Source: Thiobacter sp. AK1 (GTDB taxonomy: Bacteria; Pseudomonadota; Gammaproteobacteria; Burkholderiales; Thiobacteraceae). From it: a stretch of DNA of 64,000 nucleotides. The DNA is taken from assembly GCF_039822265.1 (NCBI RefSeq), contig NZ_JBAJEX010000004.1:1-64000 (forward strand), in the 5' to 3' direction. Shown piece after piece: positions 8,620-33,349 of the stretch (its first letter is position 1; each line of letters begins with the position of its first letter). Made by a program: the position numbers and the translations under genes. Under the pieces are notes generated by a model, which saw nothing but the letters and a program-made list of their open reading frames with translations, was not told where the DNA came from and made no database searches.

Positions 8620-8673
8620 AGGATTTCCTCCAGAATTTCGCTTCCCTCTGCATTGCCCACTCTGGAAGCGATC

Positions 8674-9858
8674 ATGAATCTGCACGAATACCAGGCCAAG
8701 GAACTCTTGCGTGAGTATGCCATCCCCACCCCGCGTGGGGTGGTGATGGAAAACACCCTGCACGCGGAAGTCGCCACCAACGAACTGGGCGGCAGTCGTT
8801 GGGTGGTGAAGGCACAGATCCATGCCGGCGGGCGGGGCAAGGCCGGTGGTGTGCGCGTGGTGAACTCGGTGGACGAATTGCGCCAGGTTGCGGACGAATT
8901 GCTGGGACGACCGCTGGTGACCTATCAGAACGCGCCCCAGGGCCAGCCGGTCTTGCGCGTCCTTGTGGAGGAGACCCTGGCGGTGGCGCGGGAGCTGTAT
9001 CTATCGGTGCTCGTGGATCGGGAGAAGGAGCGCATCGCAGTCGTGGCTTCCAGCGCTGGCGGCATGGACATCGAGGACGTGGCACGGAGCACGCCCGAAC
9101 GCATCCTGCGCGAGCTGTGCGACCCTTTGCTGGGCCTGCAGGAATTCCAGTGCCGCGCGCTCGCCTTCGCCCTGGGGCTGCGCGGGACCCAGGTGAGCGA
9201 GTTGACGCGCCTTTTGCGCAATGCCTACCGGCTGTTCGTGAGCAACGATTTGTCGCTGTTGGAGATCAATCCCCTGGTGCTCACGGAAGACGGCAGACTG
9301 GTGGCCCTGGATTGCAAGATCAGCGTGGACGACAACGCCCTATGGCGGCGACCGCGCCTGGCCGACCTGCGCGACGCGAGCCAGGACGATCCCAAGGAAG
9401 CCGCCGCGCACGCCGTGGGCCTCAACTACATCGCCCTGGACGGCAACATTGGGTGCATGGTCAATGGCGCGGGACTGGCCATGGCCACCATGGACCTCAT
9501 CAAGCTGCATGGCGGTGCGCCCGCCAACTTCCTGGACGTGGGGGGCGGCGCCACTGCGGAGACCGTGGCCAAGGCCTTCAAGATCATCCTCTCCGATCCC
9601 AAGGTGAAGGCCATCCTCGTCAACATCTTCGGCGGCATCATGCGCTGCGACGTGATCGCCGAGGGCATCATCCAGGCGGTGAAGGAGGTGGGTGTAGAAG
9701 TGCCGGTGGTGGTGCGACTGGAGGGTACCAACGTCGATCTGGGACGCAACATGCTGGCCCAGTCGGGGCTGAAGATCCTCTCCGCTCCCAGCCTCACCGA
9801 AGCCGCGCAGCTGGCGGTGGCGGCCGCCTGCAACGAGCACGGCCGTAGAAAGCCCTGA
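8674..9858 (+). CDS. sucC: Succinate-CoA ligase beta subunit
   Basis: The 394-residue protein has the ATP-grasp domain from [12 protein letters not shown] onward, the GGRGKAGGV loop near residue 50 and the C-terminal ligase fold with '[11 protein letters not shown]', 'FLDVGGGA' and '[10 protein letters not shown]'. Length and motifs fit SucC, which with SucD makes succinyl-CoA synthetase of the TCA cycle. GGAAG lies 8 bp before the ATG. The alpha subunit gene sucD normally follows directly; here 200 bp of featureless sequence and then an IS256-family copy follow, so sucD must be elsewhere or lost. A malate-CoA ligase (MtkA) is an alternative that the sequence alone does not exclude. Confidence 0.9.
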
Positions 9859-10167
9859 GGCGACGACACCACGCCCCGCCACCATCCTTGCCCTTCATCC
9901 ACCGCCAGGGAAAAGCGGACGGCAGAAACACTTCACGTCATTCCCAGCGAGCTTGAAAAAAGCACGTGACGAGCTGCCCGTGGACGTGGTTTGCGGGCAC
10001 GCGCAAATCCAGCTATCGTGGCCATGGCCGGGGCTGATCGTGGACGCCGGCTAGTTGTGTGTGTCAAGTTGTGCAAATATGCAGATCAGGTAAGTGGTTG
10101 ATCTCCGTTGCGCTGTCGGTGCCGCGTAGGGCAGAGGCCGAAGCGGTGCCGACAGCGGCTAGCCGCG

Positions 10168-11233
10168 TCAGGCGGCCAGTCTCAGCGCCTCCTTTTTCTG
10201 CTCCGCCAGCAGCGTCATGTTCAGGTAGCGACTGTCCTTTAGCCACGCTTCGTGGGTCTCGACGCACAGCGCCCGGATCAGCCGCAGGCAGGCGTCGTCT
10301 GCCTTCTGCGGCAGGTCGTCCAGGGCATTCCTCAAGAAATGCACATAGCAGCGCTGCCAGCCGGCTTCGGTCAGGGCCTCCCGGATGGCCTTCTTGAGGC
10401 CGGCATGGTCGTCGGAGACGACGAATTCGACACCGGATAGCCCCCGCTGCTTGAGCCGAATCAGAAAGTCCTTCCAGCTGCTCTGGCTCTCGCGGTTGGC
10501 CAGCTCGACCGCCAGCACCTGGCGTTGCCCTTCCCAGTTGATGCCGATGGCGATCCGCACCGCCCGCTGCTGGATCACACCCGCTCGTAGCGGGCGTTGA
10601 GGATCAGGTCAGGATGGGGTTCGGTCAGAAGGCGGTTGGCAAAGCGCGCCAAGGCATCATCCAGCCCCTTGTTGATGGCACTGATGGCGCTGGCCGAAAA
10701 ACTGTGGCCGCAGCGTTCTTCGGTGATGGCCTTGACCTTGCGGGTGGAGACGCCCTGCACATACATCTCGGCCAGCGCCGCCACCAAGGCCTTCTCGCGC
10801 CTGGCGTCGCGCTCGAACAAAGCCGTAGAGAATTCGCAGCTTCTGTCCCGCGGCACCCGCAGCTTATTGAGCATCACGTAAGTAGGTCACACCGTTGTGT
10901 CGTCCCCGCGAAAGCGGGGACCCAGGAACATGGCGAGAAATACCCTGGATTCCCGCTTTCGCGGGAATGACGTTTGACTTACGCAGCCTGTCAACGACTG
11001 ACGTTACGCTCAATAAGCGTGCCGATACGGGTGATGAGGCTGCGGCCGTCGTCGCCCGCACGGTCGCCATTCCTGCTCTCGGTCCGCTCGCCCGGCGCCG
11101 CCCCCAGAAATTCGGTCATCTCGCCTTCCAGAACCTCTTGCAGGGCTTCCTTCATCAGCGCCTTCATCAGGTCGCGGTCGTTTGCGACCGCTTCCACTGC
11201 CAACATCTTCGTCTTATGATTCCTCGTGGTCAT
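10168..11233 (-). pseudogene. Mutator/IS256 transposase, broken
   Basis: Three pieces are recognisable. 10991-11233 is the N-terminus (MTTRNHKTKML). 10575-10877 is the middle. 10168-10578 is the C-terminal catalytic part with the 'VVSDDHAGL' and 'WQRCYVHFLRNAL' motifs. The gene is interrupted by a MITE, frameshifted after 'ARYERV' (a run directly followed by TGA) and shortened by a 264-bp deletion that removes the segment containing the catalytic glutamate. The first catalytic Asp of the DDE triad appears as Asn ('ILNARYERV', where the family has LDxxY). Not functional. Confidence 0.85.
10867..11013. repeat. 147-bp MITE, copy inside IS copy 1
   Basis: Begins TTGAGCATCACG and ends GTTACGCTCAA, flanked by TA on both sides. 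It contains two internal hairpins (GTCCCCGCGAAAGCGGGGAC and TTCCCGCTTTCGCGGGAA). The TA duplication and terminal repeats point to mobilisation by an IS630/Tc1-mariner type transposase; no such transposase lies in the window. Confidence 0.85.
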
Positions 11234-11387
11234 GGTTTGCCCTCCTTCAGGGTTCAAGGTCGATCTCAATCATCAACCTCTTACCATGACCACCCGCCCG
11301 CTCCCTACTGACTGCAGACGCTTTTGCACATAAGTCAGCACATACCCCGACTGACCTGCTGCTGCATGTAGGGGATGCCACAACTTC

Positions 11388-12125
11388 TCAGGGCAGGAAG
11401 ACATGCGCGCGGTGATACCGCAAATACTTGCGGTGTCCGGGCAAGACGAAACGCAGGCGCGGCAGCGCGTCGAGTTTCAGGAATTGCCTCGCTTGCACTG
11501 CGAGGCGCGAGGAAATGAGAGTCTGACCTTCGTCGTCGAACGCGATTAGACCTTGGTCGAATAGCGCGTCAAACTGGACTGCCAGCAGCAGGCCGTTGAA
11601 GGGGTCCAACCGCTCTTCGTCTGTCGCGCGTGCCCATGGTTTGGCGTGGCTGGCGCGCAGCAGGGCTGGGGGCAGGGCCAGATCGCAGAGCGCGCAGCGC
11701 CCCTCCCACAAGTTCATCAAAGCCTCGCGGAAGAGGTCCTGGCCGATGCGCTGGCGTACCTCCCGCGTGCGTTCGGTTTCTGGAATGGCCGCCAGGCGAT
11801 CCTCCAGCGCGGCCAAAAGCAGCGTCGCCCGATGCGCTTGCAACGCATGCAGCAGCCGCAGCGCCTCGTAAAGCTGGTCGTCTCTCGTGGCCAGGCCGAC
11901 GTCGCGCATGCCCGGCGGCGTTGCTGTCTGCGCCGCGACGAGTCCAACACGGTGAACCAAGCCGGGCTCCGGCGTGGCGATCAAGGTTTGGCCGCCCTCC
12001 GAGCGGATGGCCAACACCGCCTGTGAGCCGCTGACTCGCGCCTGGAACCACCCGGCCGGGGTCGTGGGCTCGACGAGGTCGTAACCGGCGTCATTCAACG
12101 CTTTTTCAACCAGGATCGGAAGCAT
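11388..12125 (-). CDS. HNH endonuclease (HNH_2-like), last gene of the island operon
   Basis: The 245-residue protein has an unassigned N-terminal region (1-130) and a C-terminal HNH_2-type domain: Cys144-x2-Cys147, SHAKPW at 159-164, 'DPFNGLLL' at 174-181 and 'FDALFDQGLIAF' following. This pattern marks metal-dependent DNA-nicking or cutting nucleases common in restriction and defence loci. It starts 2 bp after the stop of the RNA-ligase-like gene, so the two are probably co-translated. Its position at the operon end next to an IS copy means a downstream gene may have been lost. Target and strand preference are unknown. Confidence 0.8.
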   Translation of the reverse strand: MLPILVEKALNDAGYDLVEPTTPAGWFQARVSGSQAVLAIRSEGGQTLIATPEPGLVHRVGLVAAQTATPPGMRDVGLATRDDQLYEALRLLHALQAHRATLLLAALEDRLAAIPETERTREVRQRIGQDLFREALMNLWEGRCALCDLALPPALLRASHAKPWARATDEERLDPFNGLLLAVQFDALFDQGLIAFDDEGQTLISSRLAVQARQFLKLDALPRLRFVLPGHRKYLRYHRAHVFLP

Positions 12126-12127
12126 GG

Positions 12128-12826
12128 CTAGCCTTGCTCCGCACTCGCCTTGAGCCGGTTCCAGCGCAAGGGTTGACGGCGCCAGTGCGTTTCGATGCCC
12201 TGAACAAAGTCGGGGCGCACGAGTTTGGCGCGCGCACGCAGCCACGCATCGTCTTCCCGGCGCAGGATGACACCCTCCGGAGGGCCTAGGCGATATCGGC
12301 TGGCGCTGCGCATCACGGCATCCTGCAACTGCGGCAATGTGAAGCGGCCCTGATGCAGGCGGGCAATGTGCGGCACGCCAGCCGCATGCGCCCAGGCATT
12401 GCGCCGCGTCGTGCTCCAGAAGCGCTGCGCGTTGCGATCCCACACATCAAACACCAGCCACCAGTCCGGGAGCCTGTCGTAATCCAGGGAGTGGCGGGCT
12501 GCGCACCACTCTCCAAAAACTATCAGATGTGGCTCGAGCGCATCGAACAGGCGCTCCTGATGCTGAACCAACCACGCTCCCAGCCGGCGGAACTCGCCGG
12601 AATAAGGCGGCGACAACCAGCCGCCGCGGTGTTGCACGCGCAAGCTGCCGTCCGGGCTGATCGACAGGCCCAGATTGGCACCATCGAGCTTTTCCTCGAC
12701 AACGATCTCGCCGCCGAGGAGCTCGTCGGTCTCTGCCGGCGAAAGTACCTTGTCATCACGCGGCTCGCCCTTGCCGAGCCAGACGAGGTGCGGCGTGTGC
12801 GGGAAACGGAAGAAGGCTTCGTTCAT
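12128..12826 (-). CDS. RNA-ligase-family nucleotidyltransferase
   Basis: The 232-residue protein contains the ordered motifs of covalent nucleotidyltransferases: motif I KLDGAN at 46-51 (Lys46 would carry AMP), 'LIVFGEWC' (motif III), 'WWLVFDVWD' (IIIa), 'PPEGVILR' (IV) and 'RAKLVRP' (V). It is compact and lacks any obvious extra domain, so it resembles the PF09414 RNA ligase group more than replicative DNA ligases. The expected reaction is ATP-dependent adenylation and sealing of a nick or break. The ATG overlaps the stop of the PIN gene by one base (TGATG), implying translational coupling. In this context it may repair RNA or DNA cut by neighbouring nucleases; that is inference. Confidence 0.85.
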   Translation of the reverse strand: MNEAFFRFPHTPHLVWLGKGEPRDDKVLSPAETDELLGGEIVVEEKLDGANLGLSISPDGSLRVQHRGGWLSPPYSGEFRRLGAWLVQHQERLFDALEPHLIVFGEWCAARHSLDYDRLPDWWLVFDVWDRNAQRFWSTTRRNAWAHAAGVPHIARLHQGRFTLPQLQDAVMRSASRYRLGPPEGVILRREDDAWLRARAKLVRPDFVQGIETHWRRQPLRWNRLKASAEQG

Positions 12827-13353
12827 CAGAGCGGCGGCGGCACTTCGCCCGGAAACTTTTTCTGGAAGAACCTGCGAATATCCTGCGGGCATGGGAACTC
12901 GACGCGAATGCCGTGCGCTTGAAGCTGACTTTGCCAGCGCAGCCATTTGCTGTCGGCGGCCTGCAAAACTGGAGGCTTGCTTGGATGCGCATACGCCACC
13001 GCGACATATTTGCGGTCTGGCGGATCGAACTGATCGGCCAAAGCGGGATCTGGAAACTCGGCGTAATCGTGGTCTGCATGCTTGGTGAGCGCGACCTGAT
13101 GCACTTTGTTCGGATTGGCCTTGTTTTGCAAAAGCCATTTGAGAAATGCCTCGCCCGGCCCCTTGCCTGTCCGCGTATCGAGCTTGCGCTGATATTCGCC
13201 CAGAATCTCGAACGCCTTGTCGATGACCACGCATTCGTTTTTTTGAATGCGCTCGAGCCGTTCAATGCACGCCAACACGCATTGGGGCGATACGTCGTGA
13301 TGGCGCTGACTGGCGACCAGCAGCACATTGGTATCGATGACGACCTCAGCCAT
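12826..13353 (-). CDS. PIN-domain ribonuclease-like protein
   Basis: The 175-residue protein begins with the PIN strand VVIDTNVLL (Asp7). It also carries an acidic helix 'DKAFEILGEYQ', a third acidic site 'DPPDRKYVAVA' and 'QAADSKWLRW', the order of acidic residues expected for a PIN active site. I chose the start at MAEVVID because GGAGGGG lies 7 bp upstream; an in-frame ATG at 13368 is also possible. Either start overlaps the end of the ATPase gene (8 or 23 bp). PIN proteins are usually single-strand RNases; pairing with an ATPase, as here, is often seen in toxins or defence effectors. No VapB-type antitoxin is adjacent. Confidence 0.8.
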   Translation of the reverse strand: MAEVVIDTNVLLVASQRHHDVSPQCVLACIERLERIQKNECVVIDKAFEILGEYQRKLDTRTGKGPGEAFLKWLLQNKANPNKVHQVALTKHADHDYAEFPDPALADQFDPPDRKYVAVAYAHPSKPPVLQAADSKWLRWQSQLQAHGIRVEFPCPQDIRRFFQKKFPGEVPPPL

Positions 13354-14740
13354 GTAAAACCCCTCCATCGTTCATCTGACGCTGCATGGCGGCTTTGGTG
13401 CGCGCCGCGATCTCGCCCAGATCATCGCCAAAAAAACCTTCGGGCCAGTTTTCGATCTCACCGAAGCGATTGAGCTTGAGTTCTTCGAGCTGCGCGCCTG
13501 TGTTGCCATCGCGCACGAAATAGACCGCCACGTCCTCGGGTTCGAGAAGCCGCTCGGCCACGCGCCGCTGCAGGCGCAGCAAAAAGTGCTCGGAGTGACT
13601 CTCGATCACGAGCTGTACGTTGCGCGGCCTGCCGTTTTCATAGGCCTGGACCGCGCTGATGAAGGCATCGGCCAGCTCGGCCTGCACCTTCGGGTGGAGG
13701 TGAATTTCCGGCTGCTCCATCCACACCGTGCTGTGCGGTGGCGCGTAAAAAGCCTGCACCAGCGCCGGCAGAACTTGCGAGACCCCAAAACCCACGTCGG
13801 TAAGTTTGACGTCGGGGCCGTTGGCGCGGGTGCGGACGACCACTTCGTATTCTTTCCGCCCTTTGGCGATCGGCCGCACGTTGAAGCTGTGTATCACACC
13901 GAGGTCTTTGAGCCACGCGGCGATGAAGGTATCGAAGCGCTGGCGGCGCTGTTTATAGCAGCGATTGAGTTCTCGGCCGGCGTCGGCGGCGGCCAAGATC
14001 GCGGCGATCGCATACTCCCCGCGCGCTCCCACATTCGGCACCGTGTCGCCCGCCCAGTGATAGGTGCGCTGCGGTGGTTCGCGCAGCGGCCCGAGGTACA
14101 CCAGCCCATCCAGCAGACGCTCGAGCTCCAGCGGCAAGACTGCGAGCGCATCGGCGTTCTGGTAGCGCGCCAGTGTCACGTCCGAGAAACGGTAGAACTT
14201 CTCGGGCGGCTCGACATCCCACTTGCGCCCTAGCGCATGTATCAAGCGCATCGGTTTGACATCGAGTTTTGCTTTACCGCGCGCGTCAAGTCCGTGCGTG
14301 ACGTTCAAGGTCGTTTGATTTTCGTGCAGCAGCGCGTAACTGAACTGTTCGACCATGGGCAAGCCGCGGGCATCGGCCCGCAGGGTGGTAGAAAGCCGCA
14401 GGTGATCGGCGGGAAAGGCCGCTTTCTTGTTGAGGGGGTCGGTGATCGTGAGCGGCACCGGCAGTTTCCAGCCCAGCATGAAGCTGAGTTTGGCCTTGAG
14501 ATTATGCTGATAGAGGCAGTCCTTGAACGTGCCCAGATCGATGTCCGACTGCAGGTCACCCAGATGGAGCGCGCGCTTGCGATCTGCCAGCCGCGCGGTC
14601 TGCTTGAGCGCCAGCAGCAGGTGCCCCAAGCTGCTTTTACCGGCGCTGTTGGCGCCGAAGATGATTGTCAGCGGCGCAAGGCGGATCGGGCCCGTGTCGC
14701 GCCAGGCTTTGAAGTTCTGAATTTGCAGTTCGGTCAACAT
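13346..14740 (-). CDS. AAA ATPase of the DUF3696/OLD-like group
   Basis: The 464-residue protein starts with the family's typical MLTELQIQNFKAW strand followed by a Walker A loop GANSAGKS (29-36). The Walker B region reads 'MEQPEIHLHP' near residue 330, and 'IESHSEHFLLRLQRR' follows, a hallmark of DUF3696 ATPases. No TOPRIM nuclease domain is seen, so cleavage would depend on a partner, plausibly the overlapping PIN protein. The start has GGAG upstream and lies 13 bp after the methyltransferase stop. The frame upstream of the ATG is open but is a shadow of the methyltransferase gene. Confidence 0.9.
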   Translation of the reverse strand: MLTELQIQNFKAWRDTGPIRLAPLTIIFGANSAGKSSLGHLLLALKQTARLADRKRALHLGDLQSDIDLGTFKDCLYQHNLKAKLSFMLGWKLPVPLTITDPLNKKAAFPADHLRLSTTLRADARGLPMVEQFSYALLHENQTTLNVTHGLDARGKAKLDVKPMRLIHALGRKWDVEPPEKFYRFSDVTLARYQNADALAVLPLELERLLDGLVYLGPLREPPQRTYHWAGDTVPNVGARGEYAIAAILAAADAGRELNRCYKQRRQRFDTFIAAWLKDLGVIHSFNVRPIAKGRKEYEVVVRTRANGPDVKLTDVGFGVSQVLPALVQAFYAPPHSTVWMEQPEIHLHPKVQAELADAFISAVQAYENGRPRNVQLVIESHSEHFLLRLQRRVAERLLEPEDVAVYFVRDGNTGAQLEELKLNRFGEIENWPEGFFGDDLGEIAARTKAAMQRQMNDGGVLHG

Positions 14741-14753
14741 CGGATTCTCCGGA

Positions 14754-19105
<4,352 letters not shown>

Positions 19106-19109
<4 letters not shown>

Positions 19110-21901
19110 GCGCAGGCTCCCGGCAGCAGTACGTAGGCGGCGATCACATCCACGGGCTTGAGCGCTCGCACTTCGTAGCGTCCGCGCGCGTCGGCTGCCT
19201 CGCGCACGCGGCGGTGGTCGGCGAGCAGGCGTTCGGCCTGGGCGTCGGCCAGCCGTTCGAGCCAGGGCTGGCGTTCTCGTATCGTGTCCAGAAGGGTTTG
19301 CATTTCGCGCTGCCGCACGGCATCGGGCAGGTTGCCCAGAGCCGGGGCCTGCAGCCAGGCCAATACCTCATCGCCCTGCACTTCGACGGGATCGGTACGG
19401 CCCTGCCAGGCCACGGGCAAAGCTTCTTCGACTAGCAAGGTGCGGCTGGCGCCAGCACGGGTGGCGATGAGTTGATGGCGCAGGCGCAGCAGCAGAACAG
19501 CGGTGATGCGCGTAACCGCCGGGCTGCGCCAGACACCGATGCGTCCGAGCGTGGCGAGCTGTTGGCCATCGTGCGCGTCTCCGCTCAAGGCGCGCTCGAG
19601 CAGCTCCTCGGCCAGCGTGGCGATCAGGGGGTGGCTGCGGTGAATGAAACGGGCGCCCGGCGCAGGCGGCTGGGTGAAGTCCACGCGCAGATCGTGCTCG
19701 ATGCCCACGCTGGCCAGACGCTCGCGCAGGCCAGGCGGCAGACTGCTGACCGGCACGGTGGCGCCGCGCGTGTGGAAGGTGAGCGCCGCGCCGAGTCGGG
19801 CCATCGCCTGGGTGACGAAGCGCTTGACGTCGTCGCTCGAGCCGAGCACGGCGCGCATGCGCTCCCACTCCGGCAGCACGTCGGCCGGGCGCAGGCGCCG
19901 CTGCGCGAAGACGGTGCGGTTCTTCTTGGCTTTTTCGGCCAGATCGGTCCAGCGCAGATCGAGCGCCCGGCTTTCTGCGTAGTCCTCGAAGTCGAACGCC
20001 TGCTGCGGACCGCGATTGCTGCGCAACATGACGGCCTTCATCAGCGCCTGGGTGAGCGTGTGGTCGTCGTCGGGCAGGGGCACGGGAACGCCCAGTTCCT
20101 GCCGGATTTTCTCTGCCTTGCGCAGGATGACCTGAAGCACCGCGCCATCCACGGGGTTGTTGGCGCCATAGATCAGCGTGGCGCGGACTGTCGGGCTGGG
20201 CTGACCGAAGCGATCGACGCGGCCTTCGCGCTGCTCGTGCCGGGTGGGGTTCCACGACAGGTCGTAGTGGACGATGGCATCGAAAAACTCGTGCAGGTTG
20301 ATGCCTTCCGACAGGCAGTCGGTGGCGATGAGCAGGCGGCGCTCGGCCTCGCCCAGCGCCTCGACACGGCGCGCGCGCTCCTCGGGCGGGAACTCGCCCG
20401 TGACACTGTCTACCGCCACCCCGCGAAACCGGCCGTGCAGGTGCTGGCGCAGGTAGTGCGCGGTGGCGATGTAGCGGCAGAACACCACGGGGTTGAAGCC
20501 GTCGTTCAAAAGCTGCTGGAGGTGGTCGGTGAGCAGGCGCAGCTTGGGGTCGCCCGCCTCGCCAGCGAGCGCCTCGGCCTCGCGCAACAGGCCGCGCAGC
20601 ACGGGGTCGCCGGTGTCGGCGGCGGGCGCCACATCGTCCTCGCTGAGCTGATCCTCCGCGCCGTCGAACAGCGGGCCCACCACATCTTCCGGTGACAGCT
20701 CCACCTGCTCGGCGGAGAGCCGGGTGCGAAGCGCCTGCACGGCGGCCGCCGGGCTGCTGGCAACACAACGCATCAGCGCCAGCGTGCCCCAGAAGGAGAG
20801 GCGCTGGCGGCGTTCGTCGTCCCCGGCGCGGCTCACCACCTCGCGGCAGTAGTCGAGCACGGCCGCAAAGAAGCGGTCCCACTGTCCGCTTAGCCGGTAG
20901 GTAATCTCCGTCGTCTGCCGCTGCGGAAAGATCCCGCCGTCGTGCCATTCGTCGATGTCAGGGCGGCGGCGCTGAACGAAATGCTGGGCGAGCTGCTCGC
21001 GCAGCTTCTCTTTGGCCTCGCCGGTGGCCGTGGCCAGCGCAGCGAATTCCGCTTTGAGCAGCGCAAGCAGGTTGAAGAAAGCGTGCTGATCGCCGCTGTG
21101 CGGCGTGGCGGTGAGCAGCACGAGATGGCGTGCGGCGTCTTGCGCGAGCTGTCGCAGCAGCTCGTAGCGTTGCTGGCGGTTCTGCCCGCTGCTGACGCAG
21201 GTGTGGGCCTCATCGACGATGACGAATTCAGGGCAGGCACGGATGAAGTCGTGACGGTGCCTTTCGGACTTGATGTAGTCGAGGCTGACGACGGTGATCG
21301 GATGGACGCGGAACAGCGATTCCCCGACCGGGATGCCGCGCTCGAGCCGTGCCGCACTGCTCGCTGTGACCGCGATCGCATCGAGATGGAAGCGTTCGGC
21401 CAGTTCCTGGGCCCACTGCTCGACCAGATGCGGCGGGCAGAGCACGGCCAGGCGCTGGATCTCACCGCGATCGTAGAGCTCGCGCGCGATCAATGCCGCC
21501 TCGATGGTCTTGCCGATGCCCACGTCGTCGGCGATCAGCAGGCGCACGGGGTCCAGACGCAACGCCATCAGCAGGGGCACGAGCTGGTAGGTGCGCGGCT
21601 CGACCGCAATGTTGCCAAAGGAGCGGAAGGGTCCTGCGCCGCGCTTGAGCGCCAGGCGCAGCGCGTCGGCGAGCAGAACGGCCTCGATCTGGCTGCCCTC
21701 TTGCACCGCGTCCGGAGGCGGGAAATAGGCGGATTCGATGCCGGGCTCGAGCGCGGCGTGAATCAGCGCCGTCTCGTCCTCGCCACCCGACAAGGGGCGC
21801 AGCCGCAGCAGCGGCGGCCGGCTTCCGGGCTGGACGATCCATTCGCGTCCCCGCACGCGAACCAGCGCGCCAGGGGCATAGTGCGGTGCAGCCGTGCTCA
21901 T
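19106..21901 (-). CDS. SNF2-family helicase/translocase, DISARM DrmD-like
   Basis: The 931-residue protein opens with a small beta-rich segment ('[11 protein letters not shown]', residues 13-23). An SNF2 ATPase follows: motif I 'DDVGIGKT' near 125, 'CPPHLVEQW' and DEAH near 230, then helicase C with '[12 protein letters not shown]' and '[13 protein letters not shown]' near 525-570. The helical C-terminal third is unassigned. Both flanking junctions overlap by 4 bp, typical of a co-translated complex. In class 1 DISARM the SNF2 helicase DrmD sits next to DrmMI in this way; the match rests on architecture and neighbours. Confidence 0.9.
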
Positions 21902-24900
21902 CGGGATGCCCCGTCAGACAGGCCGAGAAGCCGGGCCAGGCGCTGGAACATCGGCGTCCAGGCATTGGGATCGGCCGAAAAGCGCACGAAGGTGTAGCCC
22001 CGCTCCTCCCATTCCGCCTGCAGGTCGCGGCTAGTATCGGGCAGCGCCACCGCCACGTAATGATCGGGCCAGTGCAGCAATTCGGTGCCGTCGATGCGCA
22101 CCTTGGCCGGTGCCGGGGCTTTGGGCAAGTGTCGCGCGGCGGCCTGCTGCCATTGGCCCCCCCAGCCGGGTGCTGGCGCTGGTTCTGGCGGTAGTTCAGC
22201 CATGGTGGGGTCGGAGGCAAGCTCGGTTTCGATTTGCGCAAGCCGCCAGAGGATGCGCCGGGCGTGTTCGTCGCGCCGGTCGATGAGCTCGTGGTCGGGT
22301 TGGTTGTAATACGACAGCAGGCATCGATAGCAGCCCGCCACACAGCGGGTGTCGGGTTGGTCGTCGATCATTGCGAAATCGGGCCATGGCGCTGCCGGAT
22401 CGGTTGGTACGTCGTAATGCATGACGTGCAGTGCCTGGCGTGCGACCTGAGCCAAGGCACGGGGATCATTGACGAGCCGGGTGAGCACACCCGCGCCACC
22501 CTCGGCGGCTTCGTAAAAGAGCACACCCGTGCGGTTCTTGGCATCTGGCAGAGCCTCTGCAAGGAGTTCGGCTTCTTCTAACTGGTAGGTCGCCTCGATG
22601 CCGCGCTTGAGCGCGTGCTGCACCGTCGCCAGGGTGGTCGCCGACCAGGCTCCATGCGGCTGCAGGAGCAGCGCGTTCTTGTGGTCCTGCACGTAGGGGA
22701 CGACACGCTGCGGTGGCAGTCGATCGGCCTCGCCGCTGGCATCGTTGCCCTCGTCGTCGTCTGCCTCCTCCTTCACCCACCAGCCCGTGCGTGGATTGAT
22801 GAGAAAGCCGAATTGGTTGGGATTGCGGCGGCGGCGCAAGCCCTTGTTGATCCGCGTGATGGTCGCGCCAGCACCATAGCGCAGGGTGAGGATATCGCCT
22901 TCGCTGTCACGCGCCCGCACGCTGCGCGCGTCCACGCGGCGATTGCGGATGGCCCACTCGAAGACGGTTTGCAACTCGAATGCCTGCCGCTGGCGCTCTT
23001 CGTCGTTGGCGGTGATGCGTTCCGTGGGTTCTGTGTCCACGTTGTCGATGCGGTAGAGACCATTGATCACGGTCGCGTCGGCGAGAGACTGCCCGCAGGC
23101 GTGGCAGTCGTTCCAGTGGGCTTCGAAGTGAGCGGCCCCGCAGTGCCGGCAAATGCGTACGGCACGGGTGCTGAGGTTGCCGTCGGCGGTGGCCTGTTCG
23201 GCTGTGGAGAGCGCGATGCGTGCGCGCACGACGCGATAGGCTCGTCCTTCGTGGTAGACGAGGCTGCGCGGGCCGAACTCGGACAAGGCCAGAAAGCGAG
23301 GCCGTTGCAGGAAGGTGTTGCCCCTGCGCACGTCCAGACGACCTGGGATGTAGGCCATCAGCGGCAGACGGGGAAAGTTGTATCCGGGCAGGAACCCTTC
23401 TGTGGCCAGATAGCGGTAGGTGTAGAAGTCGCTGGAGAACGACTCGTGTCCGTGCAGCAGCAAGTCGATCTGATCGAGCGCCTGTCGGAGCCGGCGCTTG
23501 GCATCTTCGCGCTCACGCCTGTCGGTGATGGTGTAGTTGTCTAAGGTGGCCTGCGCCAATTGCTTTTGTCGCTCAGCCGATGTGAACAGGGCTCGCCAGC
23601 GGTTGAACGCCCGGTCGAAGGCATCGAGTGCATTGGCGATCACGGCTTGCGCATAAGACTGCGCGTCGGTAAACCAAGGGGCCCTTTGCGGTGAAAGATG
23701 CGCTTGGACTTGGCGCAGCACGGCGACGGCGCGACGGTTGGCCTCCTCGGCGACGACGGGCCGAGCGAGCGCAGCAAGGATGGCTTCGGACACCGGCTGT
23801 CGCGGCAGGCTTGGGTCAACGATGTTCGAGATGGAGCCGTCCAGCTCATGACGGCTCGCGGCCAGCCAGATGGCTTGCAGGTGACTTTGGATGAGGTCTT
23901 GATTGGCCAGATCGATCAGCGGCGGCTTGACGACGCCGTGAACCATGCCCGCGGCATCGCGGAAGAAATACTGGTCGTGGGGACTGCGCGCCGCGCAGTA
24001 CGTCACGATCAGCGCCGCCTGACCGCTGCGCCCAGCGCGCCCAGCGCGCTGCACGTAGTTGGCTGGCGTGGGCGGCACGTTGCGCAGATACACGGCGTTG
24101 AGCGCGGAGATATCAACGCCGAGCTCCATCGTCGGCGAACAGAACATCACGGGCAGAAAGCGATTGGGCTCGCCCAACTGTCGGGCCTTGTCAAGCAATT
24201 CCCCGCTCTTGAGGCTATCAGACTCGGGCTTGCCGAAGCGGAAGCGGGCCTCGCGTAGCGCGCGCAAATCGCCATCGACCTGGGCGGTATGCTCGCGGGC
24301 TTCCAAGCCGAACAGGAAGCAGCCGTCATGTTCGAGCAAGTCGGCGACGGCGGTATATAGGTTCCGAAAGAACGCGTTGGGACGAGTGCCCGCGTCCGCC
24401 GCTGCACGGAATCGAATGCGCCCGGCGTTGAGCCGGAATCCGGGGATATTGAACGGGGTGTTATCGTCACGGCGGATGAATCCGCCGCTCTGCGCGGCAC
24501 GAATCAGAGCCACCAGCAAATCCTCATAGTCATTGCGGCTCAGTGAAGCCGCTTCAGGTCGGCCCCCCCACAAGCGGGAATTTCGCAAGGCCTTGCCGAG
24601 GACGGTCTGCAAGCCGCCGCGAAGCACTAGTTCTTCGTCTGACCCACGCAAGGCATTGCGCGGCGGTGGCACCACAAACAGCCAGCGCCATCCCAAGAGG
24701 CGCTCTTCCCGGCCAATGCTCCAAGGATCGCGCAGCAGGCGCAGCGCGTCGTCCTTGCATTGGTTGAGACGCTGCGGATCGAGGGCGGCGGCGTCAACCG
24801 CAAGCCCCTTGCGCATGTGGTCGAACAGACAGCGGTAAACGGCCTTACGCACCTCGGGCGCGGCGTCGCGAAGCAGCGCTGGTGTGTTGCTGAAAAGCGC

Positions 24901-27186
24901 GTCGTTGGCGCAGAAGCCGTCGAGGTCGACGTACTCGGTTTGAAGCAGGCCAAGCTCTTCGAGATTGGGGTTGGTGTAGCGCCAACCCCGCCGCTGGTCG
25001 TACCAGGCGCGATAGGCCAGCACAAAGCGCAGTGTCTCTTCTGCATCCGCGAGATCGCGCGCAGTGGCTTGCGGATCCTGCATCCATTCGCGCCGGTGAC
25101 TGTCGGCCGGATCGCCCTGCGGCGGCTTGTCAAAGCCCAGCGCGGTGCGTACGGCCGCGCCGAGGCTGCTGTCGTTCAGGCCGGCAGGGCCTGCGTTTCG
25201 CAAGGCGCGGTAGATCGCGCCGCGCAGCAGGCTCACAAACGCAAAGTCATTGAAATGACCCGACTGCAAAGCGGCATCCTGCCTGTTGTCGGTGAAGCCC
25301 AGCAGCTTGCGCTTGTCTTCCGGAACTCTGCTTTCCGCGCCATGCATCCAGCGCAGTGCGCTCATGGTCAGGATGGTCGAGGCGGAGCTGCGGCCTTCGG
25401 CCGAAAGCGATGCCAGGCGGTTGCTATCCTTGCCCTGCGCCCCATGAACAGCGCGACAGCGCAGGCAATATCGGAACTTGCCCGGCATGAACCAGACAGG
25501 GTTTCCTGTTCCGACCCGGCCACCAGGGTCAACTGAAAGTCGTTCTGCTGCCAGATGCCGGTAATCGCGTTTGAGGCGCGCTTCTCCAGCGCGTGTCGTT
25601 TCGATCCATGTTTCCGGGTAGTCCTCTGGAAGACCCTGGAACTCCAGTGGATCGGTCGGACTCAGCGGCAGGACAAAACCCAACCGTTCTGCCTGCTGAT
25701 CATCGTCGCTGGAATCCTGGCCGTCTCCCGCGGCGGTCTTTGGCATGTCATCGATGTCGCGGGGCAAAAGCTTCTGGCCACCATCCTCGCGGATCAGTCG
25801 AACAGGGTGATACTCCTGTCCGCAGTCGCGACAGAAATACGTGGCAAAGAGTCGCTTGGTCGGATCGGAAGGCAGAAACTGCTGGCCTTCGAGCTCGACC
25901 GGGCGACTGCCCGGCACATCCAGCGTGGTGAACACCAAGCCTGCGCCGCTGATGAACTGATGCAGGCGAAACGCGAAGAATGCCCGGTCAGATCCACCGG
26001 GACGACGGTTGCGCTCTGGCGATGCAGCCAGCAACAACAGAGTGCGAAGAGCCTCGCCGCATGCGCGTTCGTCGCGCCCGGCCTCGCTAGCGAGCAGACG
26101 GGCAGCTTCCGCCATGGGGCGCGGATGCGCACGCGTCCATTTGCTGCCGGTTTCTCGAGTGATTCCAAGACGCGTCTCGACCCAGATGGCAAGCGGATGG
26201 GTTCGGAGTTCTTCGTTCGAGATCGACCGACTGATGCCGGCGTCTATCGCTGCGCCAAGCAGTGGGCGAACCGAATCGGCTGTCTGCGCTGGATCTGTGG
26301 CGCGGTCGAGATCCTCCGTGATCACATTGAATGGCGAAATTGGCGTCGCGAACAGTATGGAAGCCACCTCAGCCACTTTCTGGTTCCGATCGTCCTGGCT
26401 CCCACCCGATGACATCGTCGCCGAAGTTCCGATGCACAAAAGCCTGTCAGGAGCCAGGCGTTCCCGTACGCGGCGCACCAGCATGGCCACATCCGCACCC
26501 TGCCTTCCGCGATAGGTATGCAATTCGTCCAGCACGAGAAACTGCAGACCAGCGCAGTTTTCGATCACCTTCCTGTCGGTTTCGTTCTGCCGGGTCATGA
26601 GCATTTCCAGCATCATGAAGTTGGTCAGCAGAATGTCGGGCGGATTGTCCTTGATCCGGTCGCGCTCCTCAGAGGTCTCCTGGCCGGTATAGCGCGCAAA
26701 TGAAACGGGGCTGTTGTCTCCGATGAACTTGATCAGCTCTTCGCGCTGGCTGTTGGCCAGCGCGTTCATCGGATAAATCACAATCGCGCGCGTGCGTGGG
26801 GTGCTGTCATGCCTTTTCGCGCGCAGAACTGCATCTACGATGGGGATGAAGAAGCACAGCGACTTTCCGGACCCGGTTCCCGTGGTCACCACGAAACTCT
26901 CGCCCTTTGCGGCGAAGGCGATCGCCTGTTCCTGATGCGTGTAAAGCTCGATCGGAAAACACTCCGCGGTTTCAGGCAGGATTTCCCTGCGGGCCGCGAG
27001 CTGCGATGTGTGGTCGCCAGGTTTGTAGCGCGGATTGATCTGTATCAGCGGTTCAGGCCAAAAGTGATTGCTGTTGTAAGCGGCCTCCACTCCTGCGCGG
27101 ATATCGTCAGCACGGATGGAGGTGAACGAACGAGCGAAGCTGCTGTAGTCAGAGACCAAGCTCTCCCGTAGTTTGAATACATCCAT
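21898..27186 (-). CDS. DEAD/DEAH helicase with C-terminal DUF1998 (DrmA-DrmB-like)
   Basis: The 1762-residue protein has Walker A TGTGSGKS at 102-109, 'LLTNFMMLE', DELH at 220-223 and helicase C motifs '[11 protein letters not shown]' and '[11 protein letters not shown]' near 1095-1140. A Cys4 cluster follows (CRHCG...CHACG, near 1385-1410). A DUF1998 region follows, with '[12 protein letters not shown]' and '[15 protein letters not shown]' near 1600-1670. The last 90 residues add an unassigned domain ('[14 protein letters not shown]') that has the look of a restriction-endonuclease-like fold but no certain catalytic residues. The start at MDVFKL has a very strong ribosome binding site (GGGAGGGAG). 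In DISARM, DrmA (helicase) and DrmB (DUF1998) are separate proteins; here both types of sequence sit in one chain. First large gene of the operon. Confidence 0.9.
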
Positions 27187-27251
27187 TGTTCTCCCTCCCT
27201 TGAACCCCAAGCGAGCCGCCGTAGTGGCGAGCCTGCCAATTGCTTAGAGAT

Positions 27252-27440
27252 TTACTTTGTCCTCTTGTCCGGGGCCGATCCGGGCCGCTGCTTGGCCATA
27301 TATTCTTCGATTGCCTGTCGAACGACCCATGCCAACGACACCTTCATGCTCGCGGCGAGCCGCTGCAGTTGTGTATCTTTCTTTCTGTAAATTCCGTTCC
27401 GCTGCCACCGCAGGGCGGTAGGCGGTGAGTCTGTCGCCAT
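27252..27440 (-). CDS. Ribbon-helix-helix (CopG-like) protein at the operon head
   Basis: The 62-residue product contains a basic strand followed by two helices ('KKDTQLQRLAASMKVSLAWVVRQAIEEYMAK' region, residues about 20-50), the CopG/Arc type ribbon-helix-helix arrangement. It lies 65 bp upstream of the helicase start on the same strand, so it may repress the operon or act as an antitoxin-like partner of the PIN protein. No clear ribosome binding site precedes the ATG, and the N-terminal 18 residues may be non-native sequence joined by the adjacent insertion, so the true start may be later. Confidence 0.5.
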   Translation of the reverse strand: MATDSPPTALRWQRNGIYRKKDTQLQRLAASMKVSLAWVVRQAIEEYMAKQRPGSAPDKRTK

Positions 27441-27472
27441 GACATCGAGAAAGGAGCATATTCACCCTGGCG

Positions 27473-27594
27473 ATGCGACTCGAAGCAAACCCCTTGCAGG
27501 CGGCGTATGCCGCCCTGCTTGAGAATGGTCTCGATGGGGCGGCGAAGGGCAGCGTTCTGGTCAACGAAGCTGCCAAAATCGAACGAAGCGAGTT
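27473..27594 (+). pseudogene. 5' remnant of a second IS256-type transposase
   Basis: The plus-strand frame reads MRLEANPLQAAYAALLENG and later 'VLVNEAAKIERSEF', which I recognise as the N-terminus of a different IS256-family transposase subgroup ('...LLNEAxKIERSEFL...'). It is cut after 'RSEF' exactly where IS copy 2 begins. The remainder was not found in the window. Confidence 0.5.
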
Positions 27595-27710
27595 TAGTTG
27601 TGTGTGTCAAGTTGTGCAAATATGCAGATCAGGTAATTGGTTGATCTCCGTTGCGCTGTCGGTGCCGCGTAGGGGGGAGCCCCAAGCGGTGCCGACAGCG
27701 GCTAGCCGCG

Positions 27711-29040
27711 TCAGGCGGCCAGTCTCAGCGCCTCCTTTTTCTGCTCCGCCAGCAGCGTCATGTTCAGGTAGCGACTGTCCTTTAGCCACGCTTCGTGGGT
27801 CTCGACGCACAGCGCCCGGATCAGCCGCAGGCAGGCGTCCGCGTTTGGGAAGATGCGGACAACACGGGTGCGGCGCTTGATCGCCTCGTTGAGCCGCGCC
27901 AGCATGTTTGTGCGCTTCATGTGCTTGTGATGGGCGCGCGGCAATCGGTAGAAGGTCAGTGTCTCGGCGATGTTCGCTTCCACCCAGTGGACCAGCTTCG
28001 GATACTTGCTTTGCCATTTGCCGATCCAGGCCGAGAGGTCACGATGGGCCTCCTGGATGTCGCGCCGGTCGTCGGTCCAGCGCAGCGCCTGCAGGCAATC
28101 GTCGTCTGCCTTCCGCGGCAGGTCGTCCAGGGCATTCCTCAAGAAATGCACATAGCAGCGCTGCCAGCCGGCTTCGGTCAGGACCTCCCGGATGGCCTTC
28201 TTGAGGCCGGCATGGTCGTCGGAGACGACGAATTGGACACCGGATAGCCCCCGCTGCTTGAGCCGAATCAGAAAGTCCTTCCAGCTGCTCTGGCTCTCGC
28301 GGTTGGCCAGCTCGACCGCCAACACCTGGCGTTGCCCTTCCCAGTTGATGCCGATGGCGATCAGCACCGCCCGCTGCTGGATCACACCCGCTCGTAGCGG
28401 GCGTTGAGGATCAGGTCAGGATGGGGTTCGGTCAGAAGGCGGTTGGCAAAGCGCGCCAAGGCATCATCCAGCCCCTTGTTGATGGCACTGATGGCGCTGG
28501 CCGAAAAACTGTGGCCGCAGCGTTCTTCGGTGATGGCCTTGACCTTGCGGGTGGAGACGCCCTGCACATACCTCTCGGCCAGCGCCGCCACCAAGGCCTT
28601 CTCGCGCCTGGCGTCGCGCTCGAACAAAGCCGTAGAGAATTCGCCGCTTCTGTCCCGCGGCACCCGCAGCTTATTGAGCATTACGTAGGTAGGTCACACC
28701 GTTGTGTCGTCCCCGCGAAAGCGGGGACCCAGGAACATGGCGAGAAATACCCTGGATTCCCGCTTTCGCGGGAATGACGTTTGACTTACGCAGCCTGTCA
28801 ACGACTTACGTTACGCTCAATAAGCGTGCCGATGCGGGTGATGAGGCTGCGGCCGTCGTCGCCCGCACGGTCGCCATTCCTGCTCTCGGTCCGCTCGCCT
28901 GGCGCCGCCCCCAGAAATTCGGTCATCTCGCCTTCCAGAACCTCTTGCAGGGCTTCCTTCATCAGCGCCTTCATCAGGTCGCGGTCGCTTGCGACCGCTT
29001 CCACTGCCAACATCTTCGTCTTATGATTCCTCGTGGTCAT
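27711..29040 (-). pseudogene. IS256 transposase, longer broken copy
   Basis: Pieces: 28798-29040 (N-terminus), 28382-28681 (middle) and 27711-28385 (224-residue catalytic part). It shares with copy 1 the MITE insertion, the frameshift after 'ARYERV' and the Asp-to-Asn change in 'ILNARYERV'. In addition the segment that normally carries the catalytic Glu (TNxxExxNxExKRR) reads TNMLARLNEAIKRR, with Ala in both Glu positions. This copy retains the 264 bp missing from copy 1. Not functional. Confidence 0.85.
28674..28820. repeat. 147-bp MITE, copy inside IS copy 2
   Basis: Same length, ends and insertion site as the MITE in IS copy 1, differing at only a few bases. TA flanks are present on both sides. 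Confidence 0.85.
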
Positions 29041-29258
29041 GGTTTGCCCTCCTTCAGGGTTCAAGGTCGATCTCAATCATCAACCTCTTACCATGACCAC
29101 CCGCCCGCTCCCTACTGCCTGCAAACGCTTTTGCACATTAAGTCAGCACACTACCCGCCGGCTCGCTTTACCTGGCCAGAATGGCCGCCGAGTGGCGCTA
29201 AAGCGTCTCCCACCACCCCGGGGGGAAGAGTCCGTCGAAGGGGTTTTAGCGGCGATTG

Positions 29259-31637: not shown

Positions 31638-33311
31638 TTAGGCCGCGCCTTCGCGCTGGAACAGCCAGTACCGCTCCTTGGTGTCCCCCGGCCGCGCGCC
31701 CTGCCACAACAAACGCCACCGACCCTCAGGCCAGGGCGTGTTTTCGCGGGCACTGCCCTGCCATAGGATGAGATCGCATGCATCCTTTCCCCCCGTCTCG
31801 TGGCGGTGGGTCGTAATGCCCAGGTAGTAATCCAACAAGGCCCGCTGCGGCTCGCCCAAGCCGTGGCTCTCCATGCAGCGGTATTGAGCAGGCAGCGCCC
31901 GCTTTAGGCTCATGAGCATGCCGCGATAGCTCATGCCGGTATTCAGCCAGGGCAGCAGCAGAGTCGCCGCAAGCGCCCAGGCCAAGGCAACACCGCTACT
32001 CCAGCCAAGCAGGGCGCGTCCTGGCCGCTGCCGCGCCAGCGCCATCAGCGCCAGCCAGCCTAGACTGATGGTTATGGCAAAGCCGAGAGCGAGGGGACGC
32101 GCCGTCGGCTGGTAGCCTGGTTGGAACGCCGTCAAGCGCGCCGCCACTGCGGCCGGCACGCCCAAGTCCACCGCCGCCCAAATCACCCAGAGGACACACG
32201 CTGCCAGCGCGAAAAACCCCAGCCCCAACCCATACAACGCACCCTCGAGCCGCCGCGGCAGGCTTTCCATCTCGACTGCCGCCAATAGGGCGATGGGCAA
32301 CAACAGGGGTAAAGCGTAGAGTTCACGCGCCGAGGATGAGAGACTTAGCACACCCAGCGCAACCGCCAGAAAAACGCAGGGTAGCTGCAATTCGGCTCGT
32401 GTGAGACAACGCAGCCTATTGCGCCATAATGTCCATAACGCGAAGGGCACTGCCGGCCAGGCGAGATACGGCAGACGGAGCAGGTAGAAGAACGGCTCGC
32501 TGGTGGGCCCCAGGGGAGCAAAGCCGAGGAAGCGTCCGAAATTGTTGATCCAGAGCCATTCCACGAAAAGCTGGGGCGAGCGGCGGTATAGCGCGAAGGG
32601 CCAGATCGTCACCCAGGGTAGCACAGCAATGGCAGCCACCCCGAGCGACCGAACATAGCCCCGCGCGCGCCAAGCAGGAAAAGCCAGCATGGCCACTGCC
32701 GTCACACCAAGCAAACCCGGCGCGAGCAGACCCTTGCTCATGAAGCCGACGCCGGCACCCGTACCCAATAAGATGCCGCCCGCGACCGGGCGACTGCGAG
32801 CCATTGCCAAGCCGAGCAGACCCATGGCGGTGCCACTCACCATCGCCAGGTCGGTGAGAATCTGATGTGCCGGCAGCAGCAATCCGAAGCAGCCGACGAA
32901 TGCCATCACCGCTGGCCACGCGCGTTCCTTTGCGTACAAGTGGCGCGCGGTGAACGCCAGGCACAGGAGTGTGATCGCCATGTAGAACGCACTGGTCAGA
33001 CGGGCTGCATCATGCAAAGCCAGGGGCGGCGATAGGAGGTGGACGAACAAGGCCGCCGTCAAGAAATAAAGCGGCGGCTTTTCCATGAACGGCTCGCCGC
33101 CCAGGGTGGGCACGACCCAGTCGCCGCTTCGCACGATGTGATAGATCAGACCGAAACCGTACGCCTCATCCGGCTTCCACGGGTCATGGCCGGTCAGGCC
33201 CGGCAACAACCACACCAGGCACACCAGGAGGTATATCCACGGCTTGAGCCAAGCGCGGTCAGAGCAAGAGACGCCGGCGGGATGAGACATGTGTTGTTTG
33301 TGCGCTAGCAT
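31638..33311 (-). CDS. ArnT-like membrane glycosyltransferase (PMT/GT83-type)
   Basis: The 557-residue protein has 10-12 predicted transmembrane helices. The first periplasmic loop holds the catalytic 'DPWKPDE' segment followed by 'GEPFMEKPPLYF', the signature of ArnT and related polyprenyl-phosphate-dependent sugar transferases. The soluble C-terminus ends in 'LLWQGARPGDTKERYWLF'. It would transfer a sugar from undecaprenyl phosphate to a lipid or protein acceptor in the periplasm; the acceptor cannot be told from sequence. The start is uncertain: MLAHK (chosen) or MSHPAG 21 bp later, neither with a strong ribosome binding site. Confidence 0.85.
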   Translation of the reverse strand: MLAHKQHMSHPAGVSCSDRAWLKPWIYLLVCLVWLLPGLTGHDPWKPDEAYGFGLIYHIVRSGDWVVPTLGGEPFMEKPPLYFLTAALFVHLLSPPLALHDAARLTSAFYMAITLLCLAFTARHLYAKERAWPAVMAFVGCFGLLLPAHQILTDLAMVSGTAMGLLGLAMARSRPVAGGILLGTGAGVGFMSKGLLAPGLLGVTAVAMLAFPAWRARGYVRSLGVAAIAVLPWVTIWPFALYRRSPQLFVEWLWINNFGRFLGFAPLGPTSEPFFYLLRLPYLAWPAVPFALWTLWRNRLRCLTRAELQLPCVFLAVALGVLSLSSSARELYALPLLLPIALLAAVEMESLPRRLEGALYGLGLGFFALAACVLWVIWAAVDLGVPAAVAARLTAFQPGYQPTARPLALGFAITISLGWLALMALARQRPGRALLGWSSGVALAWALAATLLLPWLNTGMSYRGMLMSLKRALPAQYRCMESHGLGEPQRALLDYYLGITTHRHETGGKDACDLILWQGSARENTPWPEGRWRLLWQGARPGDTKERYWLFQREGAA

Positions 33312-33349
33312 TTGTCCGCGCGCCATTCTAGCCAACCGGCGCACCCACG

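What the first reader, a model, noticed from the sequence alone, without database searches (positions are those of the whole stretch)
11388..27440. Seven-gene DISARM-like operon with an unfamiliar nuclease/ligase module
Helicase-DUF1998, SNF2 helicase and PglX-type methyltransferase resemble a class 1 DISARM core. The same operon continues without a break into a DUF3696 ATPase, a PIN protein, an RNA-ligase-fold enzyme and an HNH nuclease. All junctions after the first gene overlap or lie within 13 bp (4-bp overlap, 4-bp overlap, 13 bp gap, 8-bp overlap, 1-bp overlap, 2 bp gap), so the genes are probably one functional unit. I do not know of a described system with this gene set.
Basis: partly seen in the sequence, partly recalled or inferred. 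Interest (0 to 1): 0.88.

Follow-up and report, generated by a model that had tools for sequence, protein, structure and literature searches.

The report
ARMADA operon carrying embedded RNA-repair module
These eight bacterial genes are probably an antiviral system of the recently described ARMADA kind, with a separate HNH DNA-cutting enzyme where its relatives use a fused one, and with a self-contained, movable set of three genes nested inside it that looks built to cut RNA and seal it again.

Summary
The seven genes and their tight junctions are real. A small ribbon-helix-helix gene precedes them, and the helicase starts at 27186, not 27440. The operon is not DISARM and not one unit. It has three layers. 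(1) YprA helicase, SNF2 helicase and PglX-like methyltransferase, in the order published for ARMADA Type I (Bell et al. 2025 preprint). (2) HNH, a regular last gene of many ARMADA-I operons. It was found in 0 of 12 loci whose YprA keeps the fused Vsr nuclease motif and in 18 of 21 that lost it, as here, so it probably supplies the DNA-cutting step. (3) DUF3696 ATPase, PIN and RNA ligase, an embedded module. PIN sits directly upstream of the ligase in 75 of 78 assessable loci. The module recurs between ARMADA methyltransferase and HNH, alone with ARMADA scars, and in two genomes between hsdS and hsdR, exactly where the anticodon nuclease PrrC sits. ATPase and PIN are PADLOC's untested candidate HEC-03; the linked ligase is, as far as I found, undescribed. 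The best explanation is a DNA-restriction core carrying an RNA-cleaving guard with its own resealing enzyme. Nothing was tested experimentally. New variant of a known kind.

The parts
27252..27440 (-). 62-aa ribbon-helix-helix (CopG-like) protein, possible regulator of the operon (inferred)
   Evidence: PF01402 E 1.2e-4, above cut-off; 65 bp upstream of the helicase
21898..27186 (-). YprA-family helicase, 1762 aa, DEAD + Helicase_C + MZB/DUF1998; C-terminal Vsr-type nuclease remnant without its catalytic motif
   Evidence: PADLOC DruE 297 bits, DrmA only 49; Pfam DEAD, MZB; tail lacks the PDF...DGPHH motif
19106..21901 (-). SNF2/RapA-like (BrxHII/DrmD-like) helicase, 931 aa
   Evidence: PADLOC 'DpdE' model PDLC02853 687 bits over the full length, DrmD 264 bits; GIGKT and DEAH present
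14754..19109 (-). PglX-like N6-adenine DNA methyltransferase, 1451 aa
   Evidence: DrmMI 225 bits; Eco57I/MmeI; DPACGSG and NPPW motifs
13346..14740 (-). DUF3696 ABC/AAA ATPase, 464 aa (first gene of the embedded module; PADLOC HEC-03B)
   Evidence: HEC-03B E 7e-128 over the full length; AAA_15, DUF3696
12826..13353 (-). PIN-domain nuclease, 175 aa (PADLOC HEC-03A), predicted RNase of VapC fold
   Evidence: HEC-03A E 3e-26; acidic D7, E53, D110, D113 invariant and D134 at 90% or more among 43 sequences; AF2 pLDDT 96.9; VapC21 Z 9.9
12128..12826 (-). Minimal RNA ligase, 232 aa (nucleotidyltransferase domain only, KLDGAN lysine)
   Evidence: PF09414 E 3.6e-33; K46, E106, D127, E184, K201 invariant among 8; nearest solved relatives are Rnl3-type ligases, e.g. 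PAB1020, MTH RNA ligase
11388..12125 (-). HNH_2 nuclease, 245 aa, regular last gene of Vsr-less ARMADA Type I operons
   Evidence: PF13391 E 3.5e-10; present in 18 of 21 Vsr-less and 0 of 12 Vsr-bearing ARMADA-I loci
10053..11347 (-). Left IS256-type element, direct repeat of the right copy, 251 bp internal deletion
   Evidence: 98% identity to 27595-29156
27595..29156 (-). Right IS256-type element, same orientation
   Evidence: 98% identity to the left copy; 8-bp direct repeat CGCCGGCT at 10045-10052 and 29156-29163 brackets the pair

Best explanation
The operon is an ARMADA Type I-like DNA defence core (YprA helicase, SNF2 helicase, PglX-like methyltransferase) whose fused Vsr nuclease has decayed and is functionally replaced by a separate HNH nuclease. 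Embedded between methyltransferase and HNH is a semi-autonomous ATPase-PIN-RNA ligase module. Proposed working: the methyltransferase marks host DNA; the helicases engage unmarked invading DNA; HNH cuts it. The ATPase senses that the core is engaged, blocked or damaged and releases the PIN nuclease, which cleaves RNA (tRNA or rRNA likely) and stops translation. The ligase reseals the 5'-phosphate/3'-hydroxyl ends that a metal-dependent PIN should leave, keeping leaky cleavage harmless and letting surviving cells recover. It would be a PrrC-like guard with its own repair enzyme. Shown by sequence: gene content, order, catalytic residues, HNH/Vsr exclusivity, PIN-ligase linkage, slot swapping, the hsdS-hsdR placement. 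Inferred: every biochemical step, trigger and target.
For: Core order YprA-SNF2-PglX equals the published ARMADA Type I order. HNH in 0/12 Vsr-intact against 18/21 Vsr-less loci, Fisher p 1.3e-6; tree shows at least two separate changes. HNH follows the methyltransferase without the trio in plasmids and genomes. PIN directly upstream of the ligase in 75 of 78 assessable loci; ATPase before it in 63. Found independently of the ligase: 15 HEC-03B loci in 398 genomes, all with PIN, 11 with ligase. Trio sits behind an ARMADA-I methyltransferase in 16 of 56 assessable loci. Ligase tree needs 16 changes for 18 ARMADA-linked rows, so the module moves often. Scars: methyltransferase tails before lone trios (L009, L056, L059, L065), ligase tail before HNH (L016, L039). 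Type I RM: HsdM-HsdS-[trio]-HsdR in L026, L028, PrrC's slot. RtcR-type RNA-repair regulator upstream in L031, L037, L063, L081.
Against: No experiment of any kind. Four of 15 HEC-03B loci have no ligase, and in an Acinetobacter ARMADA the ATPase-PIN pair runs straight into HNH, so the ligase is not always needed. Six Burkholderiales carry PIN-ligase without ATPase at one conserved chromosomal place, which suggests a housekeeping RNA role for the pair. VapC cleavage ends are reported as 5'-OH in one study (PMC6459853); if true here, the ligase could not reseal them, as no kinase is encoded. The HNH/Vsr correlation is largely two clades, so the p-value overstates it. L026 and L028 are 96% alike, one event.
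Confidence: 0.57

Rival explanations
1. Toxin-antitoxin-like cargo: PIN is a toxin and the ligase (with or without the ATPase) its antidote by repair; it stabilises the island and has no dedicated signalling link to the ARMADA core.
For: Two-gene PIN-ligase units exist; the trio persists where only scars of ARMADA remain (L009, L056, L059, L065); VapC fold; an Acidithiobacillus ARMADA holds a Phd/VapC pair in the same operon.
Against: Strong preference for DNA-defence slots (between methyltransferase and HNH, or hsdS and hsdR) is more than selfish stabilisation needs; ATPase co-conserved in 63 of 75; six pairs sit at a fixed chromosomal place rather than on mobile DNA.
Confidence: 0.25
2. RNA-processing pair recruited into defence: PIN and ligase together cut and circularise or mature particular RNAs, as proposed for HARP and Rnl3, and in ARMADA they modify a phage or host RNA rather than act as a toxin.
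For: Ligase profile is closest to Rnl3-type solved structures; HARP-Rnl3 is a PIN-ligase partnership (PMC12153264); vertical chromosomal pairs in Burkholderiales.
Against: PIN model is nearer VapC (Z 9.9) than HARP (Z about 7); PIN and ATPase diverge faster than the ligase across ARMADA-type loci, as in an arms race.
Confidence: 0.13
3. One obligate seven-gene system in which all proteins assemble and act together on invading nucleic acid.
For: Overlapping genes; complete order recurs in L086 and L080.
Against: Most trios are outside ARMADA (40 of 56 assessable) and most ARMADA-I loci without ligase selection lack the trio.
Confidence: 0.05

Closest known systems
ARMADA Type I (Bell et al. 2025, PMC12458937)
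   Same: YprA-like helicase first, then BrxHII/RapA-like helicase, then PglX-like methyltransferase; one-piece helicase with DUF1998
   Different: Described as carrying a predicted active fused Vsr nuclease; here that motif is lost and HNH is encoded in trans. The paper's text does not mention HNH, PIN, SMC, DUF3696 or an RNA ligase as components. Only Type II was tested there.
PADLOC candidate HEC-03 (A: PIN, B: DUF3696 ATPase)
   Same: Both models match full length
   Different: HEC-03 has two genes; here, and in 11 of 15 independent loci, an RNA ligase follows. No functional paper found.
PrrC / EcoprrI and RloC
   Same: ABC-type ATPase plus RNase linked to a DNA-restriction operon; the trio is found exactly in the hsdM-hsdS-x-hsdR slot
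   Different: PrrC/RloC are single proteins with a different RNase triad; repair is phage-encoded (Pnk + Rnl1), not in the operon.
HARP-Rnl3 (PIN RNase P and RNA ligase partnership, PMC12153264)
   Same: PIN nuclease and ATP-dependent RNA ligase genetically linked; Rnl3 is the nearest solved ligase group
   Different: Different PIN group, minimal ligase, same-strand overlapping genes, defence setting.
DISARM class 1
   Same: DrmD-like SNF2 and DrmMI-like methyltransferase
   Different: Helicase is DruE-like and not split into DrmA and DrmB; no DrmC; below DrmD cut-off.
Pnkp-Rnl-Hen1 bacterial RNA repair (PMC4411300)
   Same: Immunity-linked RNA ligation in bacteria
   Different: Has end-healing kinase/phosphatase and methyltransferase; none here.

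Membership tests
ARMADA Type I | Operon of YprA helicase, BrxHII/RapA-like helicase, PglX-like methyltransferase, usually in that order | tested here: met
ARMADA Type I | YprA falls in the ARMADA-I clade of the YprA tree | tested here: inconclusive
   DruE-like best hits fit the stated Druantia affinity; reference sequence not available, no YprA tree with it
ARMADA Type I | C-terminal Vsr-type nuclease, predicted active (described as typical, not as the naming criterion) | tested here: not met
   catalytic motif absent in the window and 20 other loci, intact in 12; hence 'ARMADA-I-like variant'
ARMADA Type II | GajB-like helicase fused to RelE follows YprA | tested here: not met
   no such gene in the operon
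DISARM class 1 | Separate DrmA and DrmB (DUF1998) genes | tested here: not met
   one polypeptide holds both
DISARM class 1 | DrmD at or above the NCBIfam cut-off | tested here: not met
   303 bits against 610
DISARM class 1 | DrmC phospholipase D nuclease | tested here: not met
   no PLD gene among the operon genes
HEC-03 | PIN (A) and DUF3696 ATPase (B) adjacent | tested here: met
HEC-03 | Embedded in an Hma system | not tested
   here embedded in ARMADA-I; the expansion 'Hma-embedded candidate' is seen only as a name in searched text
Dpd | DpdE at the NCBIfam cut-off and 7-deazaguanine genes | tested here: not met
   DpdE 198 against 500 bits; no such genes in the operon
PrrC/RloC anticodon nuclease | ABC ATPase and HEPN-type RNase triad in one chain | tested here: not met
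   separate ATPase and PIN proteins
PrrC-like guard (works like) | RNase linked to and controlled by a DNA-restriction enzyme | tested here: inconclusive
   linkage shown; control not testable here
HARP-Rnl3 pair | HARP-type PIN with spike helical domain | tested here: inconclusive
   HARP chains Z about 7, VapC Z about 9-10; no PIN_5 hit

The most novel reading that the evidence does not exclude
A widespread bacterial immune module in which a PIN RNase and a dedicated RNA ligase, usually under an ABC-type ATPase, form a reversible 'cut and reseal' guard that plugs into different DNA-restriction systems (ARMADA, type I RM): host-encoded repair turns an otherwise suicidal RNase response into a recoverable pause.
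Probability: 0.33. Interest if true: 0.85.

Novelty: new variant of a known kind. Interest (0 to 1): 0.66.

Why it matters
PrrC showed that DNA restriction enzymes can carry an RNA-cutting backup, and phage T4 answers with an RNA ligase. This module would put the RNase and the ligase on the bacterium's side, and would make the question whether immune RNases can be reversible directly testable with three small genes. The HNH/Vsr exclusivity would also split ARMADA Type I into two nuclease flavours and predict which protein does the cutting.

Tried and rejected
DISARM class 1 and Dpd (scores under cut-offs, missing genes). HARP identity for the PIN (nearer VapC). PDB sequence search with the PIN profile: only chance matches to designed TIM barrels. 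Reading HNH as part of the RNA module: rejected, it follows the core without the trio. A seven-gene obligate unit: rejected. Viral contigs with the ligase profile gave 44 hits, only five above 35% identity; not pursued. Comparing relatives for an empty insertion site gave only one genome with sucC and Tex near each other. First attempts with wrong coordinates or not-admitted rows failed.
Full report
OBSERVATION. The window's minus strand between 27440 and 11388 carries eight ORFs: a 62-aa RHH protein (27252-27440), then helicase 21898-27186, SNF2 19106-21901, methyltransferase 14754-19109, ATPase 13346-14740, PIN 12826-13353, RNA ligase 12128-12826 and HNH 11388-12125. Walker A and DE-H motifs, the methyltransferase motifs DPACGSG and NPPW, the ligase lysine motif KLDGAN, PIN acidic residues and the HNH motif SHAKPW are all intact.

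THE CORE. PADLOC ranks the helicase with Druantia DruE (297 bits) far above DrmA (49 bits). The SNF2 protein matches DrmD/DpdE/BrxH models and the methyltransferase DrmMI. NCBIfam DISARM and Dpd equivalogs are missed by wide margins. A DruE-like one-piece YprA helicase followed by a BrxHII-like helicase and a PglX-like methyltransferase is the published order of ARMADA Type I (PMC12458937). That preprint tested only Type II; in Type II every gene was needed and defence was non-abortive. In 398 genomes of the window's phylum 13 have a methyltransferase of this kind.

HNH REPLACES THE FUSED NUCLEASE. The preprint gives ARMADA Type I a predicted active C-terminal Vsr nuclease. In the window's helicase this tail is degenerate: the ...PDF...IDGPHH catalytic stretch is missing. 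I collected 33 ARMADA-I loci with helicase tail, methyltransferase and downstream room. Of 12 with the intact motif none has the HNH gene; of 21 without it 18 do (Fisher p 1.3e-6). The three exceptions are an operon with an IS21 element behind the methyltransferase (L133), a Chloroflexota and a Streptomyces locus. A tree of SNF2 plus methyltransferase puts most HNH loci in one clade, with one separate case (L130, sister to a Vsr locus, support 0.986), so there were at least two changes and the p-value overstates independence. Four of the 21 (L039, L066, L080, L086) came in through the ligase search. Inference: HNH is the DNA-cutting subunit of this ARMADA flavour. The preprint's text does not mention it.

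THE SLOT. Between methyltransferase and HNH, ARMADA-I operons hold variable cargo: a roughly 650-aa SMC-like ATPase (L014, L104, L112, L145; the same gene follows the methyltransferase in HNH-less L103, L106, L108, L111), SMEK-type proteins (L024), a DUF3800-like pair (L039; the same kind behind the L109 methyltransferase), a 900-aa ATP-binding protein (L132), or nothing (L105, L128). Domain names without a tool hit here are my reading of the sequences. The window's cargo is ATPase-PIN-ligase.

THE MODULE. A ligase profile brought in 80 genomic loci; the sample is by design close to the window's ligase. PIN is the next gene upstream in 75 of 78 assessable loci (the exceptions are L039, L045, L062); the ATPase precedes it in 63, three are contig edges, and nine are two-gene PIN-ligase pairs. 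Approached without the ligase, HEC-03B hits 15 of 398 genomes; all 15 have PIN, 11 have the ligase. Sixteen of 56 assessable modules lie behind an ARMADA-I methyltransferase, and every such locus with enough downstream sequence has an HNH hit, though in L096 it is only a short match at the contig end. All seven genes in order occur in L086 (Burkholderiales) and L080 (Pelotalea); the helicase end is only partly inside those loci. The ligase tree needs 16 changes to explain 18 ARMADA-linked rows, so the module enters and leaves this slot often (quick tree, many weak branches). Scars agree: methyltransferase tails of about 40-80 residues just before lone ATPases (L009, L056, L059, L065), a YprA fragment in L010, and ligase tails just before HNH in L016 and L039.

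OTHER HOMES. In L026 and L028 (96% alike) the trio lies between HsdS and HsdR of a type I RM operon. That is the position of prrC in EcoprrI, hsdM-hsdS-prrC-hsdR (PMC3014915). Four loci have an RtcR-type (CARF-AAA) regulator homologue nearby on the same strand, directly upstream in L031, L037 and L063 and downstream in L081; RtcR controls RNA-repair operons (PMC7790460). Six Burkholderiales carry the PIN-ligase pair at one conserved chromosomal place between exeA/gspB and an M20 hydrolase/murA, which suggests vertical inheritance of the pair and a possible role outside defence.

STRUCTURE AND CHEMISTRY. The PIN model (pLDDT 96.9) is best matched by VapC toxins (VapC21 Z 9.9, rmsd 3.3, 127 aligned) and less by HARP RNase P (Z about 7) (Foldseek alone gave no E below 0.001). 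The ligase is a minimal nucleotidyltransferase domain nearest to Rnl3-type structures, the type whose genes co-occur with the PIN protein HARP (PMC12153264). Two-metal nucleases are expected to leave 5'-phosphate and 3'-hydroxyl (PMC12409363), the ends such a ligase seals without healing enzymes; none is in the operon. One study reports 5'-OH for VapC products (PMC6459853), so this step is open.

MECHANISM. I favour a DNA-restriction core with HNH as nuclease and an embedded RNA-cleaving guard with its own resealing enzyme, released when the core is engaged or disabled, in the manner of PrrC. Layer assignment is well supported (about 0.9 for the core, 0.75 for HNH as its nuclease). The guard role is inference (about 0.55), with a toxin-antitoxin reading and an RNA-processing reading as rivals.

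MOBILITY. The operon lies between two same-direction IS256-type copies (10053-11347 and 27595-29156, 98% identical; the family name is my reading of the transposase sequence) bracketed by an 8-bp direct repeat CGCCGGCT (10045-10052, 29156-29163), as a composite transposon would leave. The left copy has a 251-bp deletion, so it is probably immobile now.

Noticed in passing
window 10045-29163: Two direct IS256-type copies (98% identical, left one with a 251-bp deletion) flank the operon and are bracketed by an 8-bp direct repeat CGCCGGCT: a composite-transposon-like insertion of about 19 kb between sucC and a Tex gene.
   Followed up: partly
window 8653-9858: sucC stands alone here; sucD, normally next to it, is on another contig of the same genome.
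   Followed up: partly
L026 and L028, 8065-10699: ATPase-PIN-ligase trio sits between hsdS and hsdR, the slot of the PrrC anticodon nuclease.
   Followed up: yes
L057, L078, L079, L090, L093, L098: Two-gene PIN-RNA ligase pairs at one syntenic chromosomal place in Burkholderiales (exeA/gspB ... M20 hydrolase ... murA), without ATPase and outside defence islands.
   Followed up: partly
L031, L037, L063, L081: RtcR-type (CARF-AAA-HTH) RNA-repair regulator homologue near the trio (directly upstream in the first three, downstream in L081).
   Followed up: partly
L014 26435-28417 and others: A roughly 650-aa SMC-like ATPase with weak DUF2326 similarity is the commonest gene after the ARMADA-I methyltransferase; not mentioned in the ARMADA preprint text.
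   Followed up: partly
L135 2685-21084: Nocardioides plasmid carries DISARM drmA/drmB directly beside an ARMADA-I operon with McrBC-like genes in the cargo slot.
   Followed up: no
L146 26123-28780: Acinetobacter soli plasmid ARMADA with ATPase and PIN but no ligase, running straight into HNH.
   Followed up: no
window 31638-34688: 1016-aa minus-strand ORF without a Pfam match, with a strong AT skew (0.31 at 32001-34000).
   Followed up: no
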